Positions 29,256 through 33,240 of a stretch of DNA of 64,000 nucleotides are shown one piece after another (the stretch's first letter is position 1; every line of letters begins with the position of its first letter). The stretch is taken from positions 1 to 64,000 of the forward strand of contig JAUYAK010000129.1 in assembly GCA_030693515.1 (NCBI GenBank), read 5' to 3'. Origin of the DNA: Opitutaceae bacterium (GTDB lineage: Bacteria; Verrucomicrobiota; Verrucomicrobiia; Opitutales; Opitutaceae). Under the pieces are notes generated by a model. The model was given only the letters and a program-made list of their open reading frames with translations, had not been told where the DNA came from and ran no database searches. Position numbers and translations under genes: made by a program.

Positions 29256-29263
29256 TGAGGGAC
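29256..29263 (+). repeat. Left 8-bp target-site duplication
   Basis: TGAGGGAC directly precedes the left terminal inverted repeat and is repeated exactly at 32896-32903 after the right one. A longer duplication of 13 bp is also consistent because the flank and the repeat both contain CTACC. Confidence 0.9.
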
Positions 29264-29281
29264 GGTAGTGTCCTAGTTTGA
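29264..29281 (+). repeat. Left terminal inverted repeat of the transposon
   Basis: GGTAGTGTCCTAGTTTGA, 18 bp, is the exact reverse complement of 32878-32895. It starts with GG, as in many IS1595-family ends. Confidence 0.95.
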
Positions 29282-29327
29282 GCGGGCGCTGGTGCTGGAG
29301 CTAACTCTGGACGTCGGAAGGCCGCTC

Positions 29328-30449
29328 GTGTTGATCGAAGGGGTGTCCTACCCCTACCCAATTTACAGCCGAAACCGCGTCGATAAGGCGGGCGATGTTT
29401 TGGTTAATAATAAGGAATGGAATCAATACCTGCTTTGGGATGATTTGGATGAAGCAATTGGCATCATCAACAACTGGCGGGCCGCGCACGCCTATCCGCT
29501 AAACGCGCTAACAACACGACTAAAGGCCACGGCCTATGAGGTGTCGCCGCAGGCTTTGATTGCACAGCGGCTCAAGCGTATCGAAGCCATTAAGTTCAAG
29601 ATGGAGCGGAGCCGGGAGAGTGGTCGAGTCTTTGGGCTTTCAACCATGCAGGATATCGGTGGCTGCCGAGCGGTGTTTCCCACCGTCAAACACGTTGAGG
29701 CGTTGCGAGACTTCTACTGTTCTGCCGGAGAACGAAATCGGAATCGAGGCTCGGAACTCACAAAGATGTTTGATTACATCAAGGAGCCCAAGCCGGATGG
29801 TTATCGTGGTGTCCATTTCGTCTTTAGGTATCGGGGCCAAACACGAAGTTCACTTCGAGGAAAAGGTTCCACGGCGTGGGATCGGTCAAAGTTCGATGGC
29901 CTGAAAATCGAGATTCAAATTCGCTCGATCCTTCAGCACCAATGGGCGAGCGCCGTAGAAACAGCGGGCCGCTACACACGCCAGAATATCAAAGGGAGCG
30001 CCGGGGAAGCAAAATGGTCGCGTTTCTTTTCACTCACGGGCTCGGCAATTGCGATGCTCGAAGATCGCCCGACCATTGCCAAGACTCCTACGACGCAAGC
30101 GGGACTAATCGGCGAAATCCAAAAACACGGAGAACAGCTTGAGTTGCTCAGGTCTTACACGTCACCGAACATCATTTTCCCGAAAGGGGGCAAAGAAGGA
30201 GACGTTTTCGTCCTAGTGGTTGATCCCGAACGTGGGCAGGTGGAAGCACGACCCTTTCAACGCCGCCGTTTGGTGGCCGCCCAAGAAGCATATTTCTCTA
30301 CGGAGAGAACGATTCGGTCTCAAGTTGGCGTGGAAGCGGTTCTGGTTGGTGTGAACTCCGAGGAACAGCTAAAGATCGCTTATCCAAGCTATTATCTGGA
30401 TGCCCGTGATTTTGTGAAGACCATCATGGGGTTTACTGCACGACGCTAA
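29328..30449 (+). CDS. RelA/SpoT-domain nucleotide pyrophosphokinase-like protein (transposon cargo)
   Basis: About 373 residues. The synthetase core is intact: RLKRIEAIKFKMERS, MQDIGGCRAVF with the Asp, DYIKEPKPDGYRGVHF with the Tyr that stacks on the acceptor, and LKIEIQIRSILQHQWASAVE with the catalytic Glu. There is no HD hydrolase domain, and TGS or ACT domains are absent, so it resembles small alarmone synthetases and the toxic toxSAS/CapRel-type proteins. A C-terminal part of roughly 150 residues is unassigned. The GTG at 29328 is preceded by GGAAGG at a 6-nt spacing; GTG codons at 29292 and 29343 are alternatives. It overlaps the convergent RHH gene by 17 bp. Whether it makes (p)ppGpp, ppApp or modifies tRNA cannot be told. 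Confidence 0.85.
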   Translation: MLIEGVSYPYPIYSRNRVDKAGDVLVNNKEWNQYLLWDDLDEAIGIINNWRAAHAYPLNALTTRLKATAYEVSPQALIAQRLKRIEAIKFKMERSRESGRVFGLSTMQDIGGCRAVFPTVKHVEALRDFYCSAGERNRNRGSELTKMFDYIKEPKPDGYRGVHFVFRYRGQTRSSLRGKGSTAWDRSKFDGLKIEIQIRSILQHQWASAVETAGRYTRQNIKGSAGEAKWSRFFSLTGSAIAMLEDRPTIAKTPTTQAGLIGEIQKHGEQLELLRSYTSPNIIFPKGGKEGDVFVLVVDPERGQVEARPFQRRRLVAAQEAYFSTERTIRSQVGVEAVLVGVNSEEQLKIAYPSYYLDARDFVKTIMGFTARR

Positions 30450-30651
30450 CGTCTGGCGCGGTTTTCTCTGCACGACGCTTGCTTCCAGCCTGGTCTAGCA
30501 GGGTTTCGCGAACCCAGTTAGACAGAGTTTTCTTGGCCCTGTGTGCCGTGTCTTCGAGTTGTTTTCGCTCCGCAGGAGTGAACCTGACGCCAAGGATTTT
30601 TCCCTTGGCCTCTGCCTTCGCAAGTTTTGGGCGCCCAATCTTAGGTTTCAT
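30433..30651 (-). CDS. Ribbon-helix-helix (CopG/Arc-like) DNA-binding protein
   Basis: 72 residues, basic. KILGVRFTPAERKQLEDTA is the RHH strand-helix pattern, and KTLSNWVRETLL is the second helix. An N-terminal Lys/Arg-rich GRPKLAKAEAK may contact DNA. It is convergent with and overlaps the RelA/SpoT gene by 17 bp, and is divergent from the transposase gene. The ATG at 30651 lies 2 bp from a palindromic site likely to be its own operator. It may repress itself and the transposase; it could also be an antitoxin-like regulator for the RelA/SpoT protein, though it is not in an operon with it. Confidence 0.75.
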   Translation of the reverse strand: MKPKIGRPKLAKAEAKGKILGVRFTPAERKQLEDTAHRAKKTLSNWVRETLLDQAGSKRRAEKTAPDVSVVQ

Positions 30652-30718
30652 GTTGTTTAACAAAAAAGCTTGCACGCACCGTATTGTTGTTAAACATAAA
30701 AGCAATCCAATAACTCCG
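30652..30718. promoter_or_regulatory. Divergent promoter region with two palindromic operator-like sites
   Basis: TTGTTTAACAA at 30653-30663 and TGTTAAACA at 30688-30696 are each palindromic about one base. Together, TGTTTAACAA and TTGTTAAACA form a perfect 10-bp inverted repeat with a 23-bp spacer. They flank a candidate -35 (TTGCAC at 30670) for the transposase. Two-site palindromic operators are usual for RHH autorepressors, and the RHH gene starts right beside the first site. Confidence 0.6.
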
Positions 30719-31549
30719 ATGGCCAACGTCCTCCCAATCGAAAAGAAAGCCGCAGCAGTCTCCATGCTCTGCGAGGGTGCGAGCATCCGCAGCGTTGAGC
30801 GCATCACGGGCATTCACCGCGACACGATCATGCGCCTTGGCGTCCGCATGGGCGAAGGCTGCAAGCGGATCATGGACGAGAAGCTCCGCAATCTGGATTC
30901 CCGTGTCATCGAAGTTGACGAGGTGTGGGGTTTCGTGGGCATGAAGCAGAAGACTGCGAACAAGCAGGGTGCCGCCGACAACATGGGCGATGTCTGGACT
31001 TGGATCGCATTGGACGCCGAAACGAAGCTCGTGCCGTCCTTCGCCGTAGGTGACCGCAATCAGGTGATGGCGGACCTTTTCATCGAAGACCTTGCCTCCC
31101 GGCTTGCCCATCGTGTGCAAATTTCCAGCGATGCCCTTCGTGCCTACCAAGGCGCCATTGAGCGCGCTTTCGGCACAGACGTGGACTACGGGACCGTAGT
31201 GAAGACGTTCAGTAGCGCTCAACTGGAGGAGCAACGCCGTTACTCCCCGCCAGAAGTTGTGAAAGTGGAGCGGGTCGCCGTCAGCGGCAATCCTGACGCC
31301 GGCCTGATTTCCACTAGCTACATCGAAAAGCAAAACCACACCCTGCGGATGCATTGCCGCCGTCTTTCCCGCCTCACGAACGCGTTCAGCAAGAAGCTCG
31401 AAAACTTCAAGGCTGCCGTGGCGCTTCACTACGGCTACTACAACTTCATCAAGATGCACAAAAGCATCCGCTGCACACCTGCGATGGCCGCTGGCGTTGT
31501 CAGTTCGCCGTGGACTGTCGCCGAGCTAGTCGAAATGATCGAGGGATGA
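30719..31549 (+). CDS. IS1/IS1595-type DDE transposase
   Basis: 276 residues. An N-terminal helix-turn-helix (MLCEGASIRSVERITGIHRD) precedes a DDE core with Asp67 (VIEVDEVWGF), Asp138 (ISSDALRAY) and Glu203 (STSYIEKQN). The C-terminal segment RRLSRLTNAFSKKLEN followed by YYNFIKMHKSI and TPAMAAGV is a strong family signature. These proteins are often annotated IS1 family; the 8-bp duplication fits IS1595 as well. It is a single ORF with no frameshift, in contrast to the classical IS1 InsA-B' arrangement. It looks complete. Confidence 0.93.
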   Translation: MANVLPIEKKAAAVSMLCEGASIRSVERITGIHRDTIMRLGVRMGEGCKRIMDEKLRNLDSRVIEVDEVWGFVGMKQKTANKQGAADNMGDVWTWIALDAETKLVPSFAVGDRNQVMADLFIEDLASRLAHRVQISSDALRAYQGAIERAFGTDVDYGTVVKTFSSAQLEEQRRYSPPEVVKVERVAVSGNPDAGLISTSYIEKQNHTLRMHCRRLSRLTNAFSKKLENFKAAVALHYGYYNFIKMHKSIRCTPAMAAGVVSSPWTVAELVEMIEG

Positions 31550-31827
31550 GCGACCGGATCGAGAAACTGCGGGACGCGGTGCAAGTGATGCACCGCTGTT
31601 CCGCCACGCACGCCCAGTCTGTGCCAGTCCGCGAGATGTTCGGCGGCAAGGTCGCATGGGAGGGTGTCGTCGAAGCCTTCACGATCACCGGCCATCCCAA
31701 GGCGAAACGCTGCTATGCGTGGAGCTATCAGGACGGCAAGGAGACGCAGTTTGTGACCGTCCTAGAGATTCCGCCGGTTAAGGACGCTCCGACCGCCGTT
31801 CGCGCCTCAATTGCAGCCAAAAGATGA
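31546..31827 (+). CDS. Small hypothetical protein coupled to the transposase
   Basis: 93 residues starting MSDRIEKLRDAVQVMHRC, with a central SVPVREMFGGKVAWEGVVEA and a two-strand-like segment KRCYAWSYQDGKETQFVTVL. The ATG overlaps the transposase stop by 4 bp (ATGA), so the two are translated together. From memory, similar short ORFs accompany transposases of this type in other bacteria, where they have no assigned function. It could be an accessory transposition protein. Not recognised by any named domain. Confidence 0.8.
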   Translation: MSDRIEKLRDAVQVMHRCSATHAQSVPVREMFGGKVAWEGVVEAFTITGHPKAKRCYAWSYQDGKETQFVTVLEIPPVKDAPTAVRASIAAKR

Positions 31828-31955: not shown

Positions 31956-32312
31956 ATGAAACAACGAATCCAACTTAGGAAAAGCGCTGGTAAGACCATC
32001 GTGGAATCGGAAATCGCTTGGAAAATCGCCGAGGAGCCCGCGATTTCGCGTTTTGTTGCGGTCTGCCCTGCCTTGAACATCACGCTTCGCGCCAACACAC
32101 GCGAAGAGCTTTTTTCACTAATCCCCGAGAGCCTTGAGTCTCTTTTTTCGAGCTTGGACAAGCACGGTGATTGGGACGCCTTTTTCAAGGAAATCAAATG
32201 GGCCAAGCAGGAGAGCCGCGCACTTCAAAATGCCCGGCGAAATTCTCCCGGTCTTCCCCCGTTAAGAATTGAATCGGTAACGCCCCATGATCTTCAACTC
32301 GCAGCTTGTTGA
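31956..32312 (+). CDS. HicB-like antitoxin candidate (transposon cargo)
   Basis: 118 residues. The centre, RFVAVCPALNITLRANTREELFSLIPESLESL, matches the HicB pattern of a partial RNase-H fold (xVAxxPxL... then a periodic helix). It lies directly upstream of, and overlaps by 26 bp, a short basic ORF with a HicA-like H-x-Y/F-K-x-x-G stretch. A C-terminal extension of about 40 residues is not recognised and no clear DNA-binding domain is visible. The order HicB then HicA is the less common one. A divergent family member is likely. Confidence 0.6.
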   Translation: MKQRIQLRKSAGKTIVESEIAWKIAEEPAISRFVAVCPALNITLRANTREELFSLIPESLESLFSSLDKHGDWDAFFKEIKWAKQESRALQNARRNSPGLPPLRIESVTPHDLQLAAC

Positions 32313-32541
32313 AAAACTGCGCGAGTTGGGGTTTCACTTCGATACCAGTTCAAAGCGCGCCCACACATACAAAAAGAAGGGCGCAACAACGCGCGTGACC
32401 TTCAACACGCGAGATCAGTATGAGGACCGGGACGCGAGGTCTCATGTTGTTCAGGCCGGAATGAACCCGGCGGATGCTCAAGTTTGGGTTACGCAATTGT
32501 CGCAGGCCAATGCTGCGCCCCCAGCTCCGCCCGCGCCCTAG
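32287..32541 (+). CDS. HicA-like mRNA-interferase candidate (transposon cargo)
   Basis: 84 residues. LVEKLRELGFHFDTSSKRAHTYKKKGATTRVTF follows the HicA double-stranded-RNA-binding fold: a helix, a turn, then a strand with a single conserved His (here His26 in RAHTYKKKG). A Pro/Ala-rich tail follows. It is translationally linked to the HicB-like gene by a 26-bp overlap. The extension after residue 45 is not typical, so the assignment rests on position, size and the His-containing hairpin. Confidence 0.55.
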   Translation: MIFNSQLVEKLRELGFHFDTSSKRAHTYKKKGATTRVTFNTRDQYEDRDARSHVVQAGMNPADAQVWVTQLSQANAAPPAPPAP

Positions 32542-32834
32542 CGGCGCGGTAGTCTGATAGGGTAGAGGGCCGCGAGTTTGAGAAGCGGGGATGTGCGCTT
32601 CGTGCGTCGGGGGGCCAGCTCGCCCTTGCTTCTGGCATCCGGCGTCACAATCCACCGCTCCGGGCACGAACGGCCCGTTGAGCCTTCGATCGGCATCGGG
32701 AAGGAATAGCGGATGCAGACGCCACGATGCGGCGCCTCGCGCCTTGGTTTCCGCGCCGGGTTGGGCACGTAGGCAATCCCGCCCTTTGCTTTGAATCGCT
32801 GGCGTATCAGATCGGCGCGCATCTCCTTGTCCAT
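32538..32834 (-). CDS. Possible 98-residue transposon cargo protein of unknown function
   Basis: Reads MDKEMRADLIRQRFKAKGGI, then YVPNPARKPRREAPHRGVCI and YSFPMPIEGSTGRSCPERW. The codons show a GC-rich third position and an ordinary amino acid balance, which argues for real coding. It occupies the only stretch of more than 300 bp left free on the plus strand of the transposon and ends against the HicA-like stop codon. No ribosome-binding site is clear and no family is recognised. It may be a remnant of older DNA carried by the element. Confidence 0.4.
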   Translation of the reverse strand: MDKEMRADLIRQRFKAKGGIAYVPNPARKPRREAPHRGVCIRYSFPMPIEGSTGRSCPERWIVTPDARSKGELAPRRTKRTSPLLKLAALYPIRLPRR

Positions 32835-32877: not shown

Positions 32878-32895
32878 TCAAACTAGGACACTACC
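32878..32895 (-). repeat. Right terminal inverted repeat of the transposon
   Basis: TCAAACTAGGACACTACC, the exact reverse complement of the left repeat at 29264-29281. Confidence 0.95.
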
Positions 32896-32903
32896 TGAGG
32901 GAC
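32896..32903 (+). repeat. Right 8-bp target-site duplication
   Basis: TGAGGGAC, identical to 29256-29263. With the flank, the uninterrupted target would read CCTGAG-GGA-CTCAGG, a small palindrome. Confidence 0.9.
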
Positions 32904-32910
32904 TCAGGGC

Positions 32911-32939
32911 TTGACACTCGGAAGTGTGCTCCGTGTTGT
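32911..32939 (+). promoter_or_regulatory. rpsP: Candidate sigma-70 promoter for rpsP
   Basis: A perfect TTGACA at 32911-32916, then a 17-bp spacer and TGTTGT at 32934-32939 as a weak -10. It lies 43 bp ahead of the rpsP ATG and only 15 bp outside the right end of the transposon, so rpsP keeps its own promoter. Confidence 0.55.
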
Positions 32940-32982: not shown

Positions 32983-33240
32983 ATGGCTCTCAAAATCCGT
33001 CTTACCAAGGTTGGTTCCGTCCACCAGCCGCTCTACCGCGTGATCGTCAAGGAGGCGCGTTCGCGCCGTGATGGCGATGCGGTCGAATACCTCGGCACTT
33101 ACACGCCGGCGATCAAAAGCAACCCCATCAAGCTCAACCTTGAGCGGGTCGACTACTGGATCAGCAAGGGCGCGAAGCCGACCGACACCATGCGCTCCAT
33201 GATCAAGAAGGCGCGCAAGGCCGCGGCGCCTGCCGCCTGA
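32983..33240 (+). CDS. rpsP: 30S ribosomal protein bS16
   Basis: 85 residues, a normal size. It opens MALKIRLTKVGSVHQPLYR, followed by GDAVEYLGTYTP and LERVDYWISKGAKPTDT, all family signatures. It binds 16S rRNA in the small subunit. Usually followed by rimM and trmD; here trmD follows directly after 104 bp with a terminator-like hairpin between. Confidence 0.97.
   Translation: MALKIRLTKVGSVHQPLYRVIVKEARSRRDGDAVEYLGTYTPAIKSNPIKLNLERVDYWISKGAKPTDTMRSMIKKARKAAAPAA

What the first reader, a model, noticed from the sequence alone, without database searches (positions are those of the whole stretch)
30652..30718. Two palindromic sites between the RHH gene and the transposase gene
TTGTTTAACAA and TGTTAAACA sit about 34 bp apart on centres and make a perfect 10-bp inverted repeat. 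They frame the likely transposase promoter and one touches the RHH start. An RHH repressor that shuts down both its own gene and transposition would explain the arrangement. It would be a simple self-limiting switch for the element.
Basis: partly seen in the sequence, partly recalled or inferred. Interest (0 to 1): 0.58.

Follow-up and report, generated by a model that had tools for sequence, protein, structure and literature searches.

The report
Transposon repressor with matched operators
Two short palindromes in front of a bacterial jumping gene are very probably the landing sites of a small repressor carried by the same mobile element; across related elements repressor and landing site change together, so each element seems to run its own private off-switch.

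Summary
TGTTTAACAA (30654-30663) and TTGTTAAACA (30687-30696) form a perfect 10-bp inverted repeat, centres 34 bp apart; 4 of 2000 shuffles contain one. They lie in a 3632-bp IS1-like element with 18-bp terminal repeats and 8-bp target duplication. Relatives show a conserved module: core, 7-8 bp, -35 box, 12 bp, second core over the -10. It exceeds the 99th percentile of shuffles in 50 of 63 loci with the ribbon-helix-helix (RHH) gene and 2 of 33 without; the window copy itself fails this automatic cut because its -35 box is weak. Core letters co-vary with the DNA-reading strand of the RHH protein; the residue matching Arc Asn11 is the top RHH column (z 11.5), and the trend holds in nearest-relative pairs. 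So the RHH protein very probably reads these sites and represses the transposase; binding was not measured. Unexpectedly, the elements insert at a fixed distance (8-bp duplication plus 7 bp) upstream of host -35 boxes: 19 of 56 elements against 0.3 at control offsets, as unrelated TnGBS/ISLre2 elements do. Ingredients are known kinds; the combination was not found in my searches.

The parts
29256..29263 (.). left copy of the 8-bp target duplication TGAGGGAC
29264..29281 (+). left terminal inverted repeat GGTAGTGTCCTAGTTTGA
   Evidence: 18 of 18 complementary to 32878-32895
29292..30449 (+). passenger gene with RelA/SpoT domain, candidate anti-phage family PDC-S33
   Evidence: PF04607 4.7e-13; PADLOC PDC-S33 1.7e-92
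30433..30651 (-). RHH gene, 72 aa; Gly21 matches Arc residue 11
   Evidence: PF21983 1.1e-7; AlphaFold2 mean pLDDT 82; RHH chains lead the structural list
30653..30663 (.). operator O1, core TGTTTAACA 30654-30662; wider direct-repeat unit 30651-30669
   Evidence: module in relatives
30670..30675 (+). candidate -35 box TTGCAC of the transposase promoter, placed by comparison with relatives; 3 of 6 to consensus
   Evidence: nothing reported there by the promoter scan
30687..30696 (.). operator O2, core TGTTAAACA 30688-30696; wider direct-repeat unit 30685-30703; overlaps the -10 position
30719..31549 (+). IS1-like transposase, one uninterrupted frame, 276 aa
   Evidence: ORF; NF033558 7e-20, below its cut-off; PF03400 5.4e-7, above its cut-off
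31546..31827 (+). orf93, conserved 93-aa companion gene overlapping the transposase stop
   Evidence: found in 82 of 97 loci
31956..32834 (.). further passenger ORFs: 31956-32312 +, 32287-32541 +, 32538-32834 -; no family above cut-off
32878..32895 (-). right terminal inverted repeat
32896..32903 (.). right copy of the target duplication TGAGGGAC
32911..32939 (+). host promoter hit by the element: TTGACA 32911-32916, 17 bp, TGTTGT 32934-32939, exactly 7 bp after the duplication; next ORF 32983-33240 (rpsP-like, recalled)

Best explanation
The two palindromes are operators O1 and O2 of the RHH protein encoded by the same transposon. A dimer reads each 9-bp core (TGTTTAACA here) with its two-stranded sheet; the N-terminal GRPKL arm may lie on the A-run beside the core. 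O2 covers the -10 box and O1 lies just upstream of the -35 box, so occupancy keeps RNA polymerase off and holds down the transposase and the 93-aa protein behind it. In the window layout O1 also abuts the RHH start codon, so the gene should repress itself; where RHH lies behind the transposase, the loop closes through the shared promoter. These one-frame transposases do not make the frameshift-dependent InsA repressor of classical IS1, so the RHH protein would stand in for InsA. Shown by computation: the conserved architecture, its association with the RHH gene, and co-variation of core and reading strand. Inferred: binding, repression, autoregulation, role of the arm.
For: Module above the 99th percentile of 1920 shuffles in 50 of 63 RHH+ loci, 2 of 20 RHH- with orf93, 0 of 13 RHH- without orf93 (Fisher 1.2e-12). 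Best inverted pair 9.86 of 12 in 64 RHH+ versus 8.55 in 33 RHH- loci, p 9e-8. Of the RHH columns, the one of window Gly21 is most associated with core bases (z 11.5), then three in or next to the same strand (8.1, 6.2, 5.8); strand versus site given transposase r 0.274, p 0.0005 (n 52). Gly21 aligns with Arc residue 11 (1myl_A, Z 5.6, rmsd 1.7, 45 aligned). Arg there goes with 4-6 G/C of 8 central bases in 12 of 12, others 0-4; Gly with T at core position 4 in 3 of 3 and no other row. In 26 disjoint nearest-relative pairs the cores differ by 5.8 of 18 when that residue differs (15 pairs) and 1.8 when it is the same (11 pairs), p 0.0006. Window and L032: transposases 88% identical, residue Gly versus Pro, core TGTTTAACA versus TGTAATACG.
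Against: No binding data. 13 of 63 RHH+ loci fall below the cut, including the window copy. L063 has a good pair with no RHH in the 6 kb held; L095 also passes. Relatedness is not fully removed: transposase versus site given strand keeps r 0.216, p 0.005, the best of 221 transposase columns reaches z 8.3, and the rest of the RHH protein given strand keeps r 0.215, p 0.009. Tree-based independent pairs go the expected way in about 5 of 6 and never the other way, but are too few (median p 0.0625). Some rows break the simple code: L072 and L090 have Gln, L059 Pro, with G/C in the core.
Confidence: 0.8

Rival explanations
1. The transposase, or a shorter form of it as InsA in IS1, binds the sites and represses itself; the RHH gene is a passenger.
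For: IS1 precedent: InsA represses the IS1 promoter (PMC12428005, passages). Transposase distance still correlates with site distance given the RHH strand (r 0.216, p 0.005).
Against: Only 2 of 33 RHH- relatives have the module, though all 33 have the transposase and 20 also orf93. Given the whole RHH distance the transposase correlation falls to r 0.121, p 0.066. The window and L032 transposases are 88% identical with unlike cores.
Confidence: 0.08
2. A host regulator uses the sites to couple transposition to cell state.
For: Sites overlap the promoter in the way of many host operators.
Against: Core letters follow the RHH protein inside the element, and elements in one genome can differ: window TGTTTAACA, G000:C24 TGTATACGG.
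Confidence: 0.05
3. The RHH protein is a relaxosome accessory like NikA/MobC and the repeats are part of a transfer origin; promoter overlap is incidental.
For: Best Pfam match is NikA-like (1.1e-7); NCBIfam hits MbpA and MobA lie far below cut-off; NikA is the best sequence match in PDB (1.6e-5).
Against: No relaxase family among the seven element ORFs tested. Both sites keep fixed places relative to the -35 box.
Confidence: 0.04
4. Chance or simple duplication in an A/T-rich intergenic stretch.
For: The stretch is 36% G+C and the sites are also a 17/19 direct repeat.
Against: 4 of 2000 shuffles; recurrence at fixed positions in distant relatives.
Confidence: 0.02

Closest known systems
IS1 of Escherichia coli with repressor InsA (PMC12428005, passages seen)
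   Same: IS1-type transposase; the element makes its own repressor of the transposase promoter.
   Different: InsA is the unframeshifted part of the transposase reading frame and binds the terminal repeats; here the repressor is a separate RHH gene and the sites are internal, the transposase is one frame, and a conserved 93-aa gene follows.
TnGBS / ISLre2 / part of ISKra4 (PMC3942029, abstract and two sections read)
   Same: Insertion at a fixed distance upstream of sigma-A/70 promoters: 15-17 bp there, 15 bp here (8-bp duplication plus 7).
   Different: Those transposases are Mutator-like (p-MULT 3 and 4); the window's matches IS1 models. Here the promoter lies on either side of the element.
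RHH repressors and antitoxins: Arc, CopG, PutA, AtaR, TacA, NikA (structures)
   Same: RHH fold; small dimeric DNA-binding proteins, several autorepressing (recalled).
   Different: Linked to a transposase and orf93; no toxin partner of that kind identified.
Phage repressor immunity groups (recalled, no call)
   Same: Related elements that differ in matched repressor-operator pairs.
   Different: Transposon and RHH protein; independence between co-resident elements is not shown.

Membership tests
IS1 family | transposase matches curated IS1 models | tested here: inconclusive
   PF03400 30.5 bits, cut-off 24.1 (met); NF033558 71.8 bits, cut-off 100 (not met)
IS1 family | two overlapping frames with frameshift and InsA repressor | tested here: not met
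   transposase open in one frame of 276 codons; feature taken from PMC12428005 passages. So called IS1-like, not a typical IS1.
IS1 family | terminal inverted repeats and target duplication | tested here: met
   18-bp perfect repeats, 8-bp duplication; typical IS1 duplication of about 9 bp is recalled
RHH DNA-binding proteins | RHH fold and sequence | tested here: met
   (TacA1 Z 6.4, rmsd 1.9, 51 aligned; AtaR Z 6.2, rmsd 1.2, 48 aligned)
RHH DNA-binding proteins | binds a palindromic operator | not testable with these tools
   co-variation only
RHH antitoxins (AtaR/TacA type) | toxin gene in the same operon | tested here: inconclusive
   no known toxin family among seven element ORFs; ORFs at 31956-32541 match no family above cut-off
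NikA/MobC relaxosome proteins | relaxase encoded nearby | tested here: not met
   no relaxase among the seven element ORFs tested; the rest of the window was not scanned
Promoter-targeting transposons (TnGBS-like target choice) | insertion at a fixed distance upstream of the -35 box | tested here: met
   19 of 56 elements at offset 7, control mean 0.32, maximum 1; -10 peak at 17 bp; weaker repeat in viral ends, 4 of 58; 0 of 6 in another set of other IS1-like groups
Promoter-targeting transposons (TnGBS-like target choice) | Mutator-like (p-MULT 3/4) transposase | tested here: not met
   best curated matches are IS1 models; no Mutator/IS256 family listed. It works like TnGBS in target choice but is not filed as one.

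The most novel reading that the evidence does not exclude
These promoter-targeting IS1-like elements form immunity groups: RHH gene and operators are exchanged as a unit between elements with nearly the same transposase, so each element silences itself and not its neighbours. In addition O1 sits where the element's own promoter would be hit by a sibling (gap of 7 or 8 bp to its -35 box in 37 of 50 module loci; target duplications end 7 bp before host -35 boxes), so the bound repressor would also shield the element from insertion: repressor and target-immunity factor in one protein.
Probability: 0.2. Interest if true: 0.8.

Novelty: new variant of a known kind. Interest (0 to 1): 0.6.

Why it matters
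It would be a further way for an IS1-type transposon to limit itself, besides InsA and frameshifting, and it supplies about 50 natural repressor-operator pairs whose specificity appears to turn largely on one residue, a ready test of how ribbon-helix-helix proteins change target. It would also add a second, unrelated transposase lineage to the few bacterial elements known to insert at a fixed distance upstream of promoters.

Tried and rejected
Rejected readings: chance; site of the transposase (module in 2 of 33 relatives without RHH); transfer origin (no relaxase among the element ORFs tested). The simple promoter scan found no sigma-70-like site in the intergenic region, so the promoter was placed by comparison with relatives.

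Weak or leading nowhere: a search of 387 genomes of the phylum found copies in 4, the window's own among them. A second set of 47 loci (31 extra copies from 16 of the 33 genomes, one from the window's own genome, 15 viral loci) proved mostly to be other IS1-like groups: transposase found in 46, RHH in 3, orf93 in 2; of 6 delimited elements 0 had a 5/6 and 1 a 4/6 -35 box at offset 7. So that set does not confirm the target choice; it hardly samples this subfamily. Viral-contig ends repeat the peak but weakly (4 of 58); of 8 further genome ends 2 fit, one of them a second view of L024. Tree-based sign tests did not reach significance. Whether elements in one genome differ in operator type was only looked at by eye in six genomes (4 differ, 2 alike); this proves nothing. 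orf93: no match of Z 6 or more among the PDB chains compared (best 5.8, rmsd 3.5, 68 aligned); an unlisted family is not excluded.

Rows dropped: of 19 viral loci, four (L126, L127, L129, L130) were not taken on. For co-variation 11 of 64 RHH+ loci without a full automatic core call (L036, L046, L049, L051, L057, L066, L073, L075, L093, L116, L128) and the near-duplicate L070 were left out; cores of WIN, L024 and L045 were set by hand. For one search L070 was left out. For the target test L012 (same as L032), L070, and elements with duplication under 7/8 or ends under 14/18 were left out. A first regex for the reading strand misplaced several proteins and was replaced by an HMM alignment.

Papers: searches gave 0 papers; 34, 36, 48, 78, 79, 80 and 91 were seen as listings only, except PMC12428005 (passages) and PMC3942029 (abstract, outline, two sections). 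The library lacks most subscription papers.

Full report
What is there. The window (contig 9 of a 6.6-Mb genome) holds an element bounded by GGTAGTGTCCTAGTTTGA at 29264-29281 and its exact reverse complement at 32878-32895, with the 8-bp duplication TGAGGGAC on both sides; length 3632 bp. It carries a RelA/SpoT-domain gene of the candidate defence family PDC-S33, a divergent RHH gene of 72 codons, an IS1-like transposase in one frame, a 93-aa gene overlapping the transposase stop, and further small ORFs. The genome is probably of Opitutaceae: its same-genus neighbour G001 has a 15281-base contig that agrees in length and match with JANXSC010000204.1, titled Opitutaceae bacterium.

The observation. 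Both sites exist as described and are unlikely by chance. They are an inverted repeat and at the same time a 17/19 direct repeat, because each core is itself nearly palindromic.

Relatives. A scan of genome contigs gave 180 relatives of which the best 80 were kept; viral contigs gave 19, of which 15 were used. With the window and its second copy G000:C24, 97 loci were examined. An RHH profile finds the gene in 64 of 97. Two layouts occur: opposite to the transposase with its start next to site 1, as in the window (mostly in records titled Verrucomicrobia), and on the transposase strand about 0.9-1.9 kb after the transposase start (mostly Acidobacteria). The automatic tally is 31 opposite and 33 same strand; L024 is counted as same strand only because its locus is reversed, and L046 lies upstream. 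The titles are those of metagenome bins and may be wrong for single contigs.

Module. In RHH-bearing loci the transposase promoter has the form core1 (nGTnnnnCn), a gap, -35 box, 12 bp, core2 (inverted). Among the 50 loci above the cut the gap is 7 bp in 21 and 8 in 16, the core-to-core distance 34-36 in 41, and core2 starts 18 bp after the -35 start in 37; core2 thus overlaps the -10 position. The module score exceeds the 99th percentile of 1920 shuffled controls in 50 of 63 RHH+ loci, 2 of 20 RHH- loci with orf93 and 0 of 13 RHH- loci without. The best inverted pair is also higher in 64 RHH+ than 33 RHH- loci (9.86 versus 8.55 of 12, p 9e-8; single-locus p of 0.05 or less in 28 of 64 versus 4 of 33). 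The window copy scores low in the automatic test because TTGCAC has 3 of 6 consensus bases; its cores and spacing fit by hand.

Who reads the sites. Cores differ: TGTTTAACA, TGTAATACG, TGTAACACA, TGTACTACA, TGTAATGCA, TGTGGCACA, TGTAGCACA, TGTACCCCA and others. Over 52 elements the RHH column most associated with the central core bases is the residue two before the conserved strand arginine (window Gly21, z 11.5), followed by three in or next to the same strand (z 8.1, 6.2, 5.8); the best of 221 transposase columns reaches 8.3. Structural alignment equates Gly21 with Arc residue 11 (model 16-60 on chain 6-50), a DNA-contacting residue of Arc as recalled. Arg there goes with 4-6 G/C of 8 central bases (12 of 12; others 0-4); Gly with T at core position 4 (3 of 3, no other). 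Partial Mantel: strand given transposase r 0.274, p 0.0005; transposase given RHH r 0.121, p 0.066; but transposase given strand r 0.216, p 0.005, so relatedness is not fully removed. In 26 disjoint nearest-relative pairs cores differ three times as much when that residue differs (5.8 versus 1.8 of 18, p 0.0006), at similar transposase distance (0.29 versus 0.24). On a tree, Arg and G/C-rich core change together in about 5 of 6 supported pairs and never oppositely, too few for significance. An A-rich run follows core1 in 41 of 53 rows, and GRP near the N-terminus is invariant in 30 aligned proteins; GRP resembles an AT-hook (recalled), hence the guess about the arm.

Mechanism. Shown: the sites belong to the transposase promoter, are tied to the RHH gene and co-vary with its reading strand. 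Inferred: the protein occupies both sites, covers the -10 box and represses; in the divergent layout it also represses itself. In IS1 the repressor InsA comes from the transposase frame without frameshift and binds the ends (PMC12428005, passages). The one-frame relative here has no such product, so a separate repressor would fill the gap.

Cassette exchange. Window and L032 transposases are 88% identical, with similar ends, yet RHH residue and operators differ. In 7 of 36 delimited elements (six distinct) an exact third core lies at -249 to -266; in the six printed, it lies beyond the 3' end of the divergent RHH gene. With mismatches allowed, 6 of 25 divergent elements have a direct copy of the core2 region upstream at p of 0.01 or less; the window has none (11 of 23, p 0.93). 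This fits movement of RHH and operators as a unit in some elements only.

Target choice. In 56 delimited elements, at least 5/6 TTGACA stands exactly 7 bp outside the duplication in 19 (20 of 112 flanks), on either side; other offsets have 0-2 flanks; over offsets 12-39 the mean is 0.32 elements, maximum 1. At 4/6 it is 31 of 56 against 4.25, maximum 9. In 30 flanks long enough, -10 agreement peaks at a 17-bp spacer (A2 and T6 in 10 of 30, other spacings 0-5), so the targets are promoters. Viral ends repeat it weakly: 4 of 58 at offset 7, 16 summed over 45 other offsets; a further set of 6 elements, mostly of other groups, gave 0. The window element sits 7 bp upstream of the -35 box before the ORF at 32983 (rpsP-like, recalled); L012/L032 sits at the same distance before the like promoter in a same-genus genome, with another duplication sequence, so these two may be one old insertion. 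TnGBS-type elements insert 15-17 bp upstream of -35 boxes (PMC3942029); here the element end is 15 bp away. Core1 holds nearly the same place before the element's own -35 box, which prompts the shielding idea in the novel case; nothing here tests it.

Verdict. Each ingredient is a known kind; the combination was not found in the searches made, which cover open-licence papers only.

Noticed in passing
29256-29263 / 32896-32916; relatives: The elements insert with an 8-bp duplication exactly 7 bp upstream of host -35 boxes (19 of 56 elements), like TnGBS/ISLre2 elements of another transposase superfamily.
   Followed up: partly
31546-31827: A 93-aa companion gene follows the transposase in 82 of 97 loci; AlphaFold2 model pLDDT 95 (helix, four strands, helix) without a clear PDB match (best Z 5.8). 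It could serve targeting or transposition.
   Followed up: partly
L013 1369-1444, L024 2576-2651 (-), and upstream of the transposase in L035, L049, L050, L053, L078, L084, L099, L106, L107, L109, L110, L117: tRNA-like genes on the transposase strand close to its promoter in 13 of 92 loci, 0 of 92 in a downstream control; ARAGORN calls two with an odd four-base anticodon ttac. Several loops could read stop codons (by eye). None found in the window element.
   Followed up: partly
29292-30449: Passenger gene is a RelA/SpoT-domain protein of the candidate anti-phage family PDC-S33 (E 1.7e-92), so the element may ferry a defence gene.
   Followed up: no
L012 / L032 (same-genus genome G001): A relative sits at the same distance upstream of the like promoter; its transposase has one in-frame TGA and it lacks the window's RelA/SpoT gene in the stretch seen.
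   Followed up: no
L024, L037, L069, L078, L098, L109 at -249 to -266 from the transposase start: A third exact operator core lies beyond the 3' end of the divergent RHH gene, next to the tRNA-like 3' end where one is seen, as if the RHH cassette were flanked by operator copies.
   Followed up: partly
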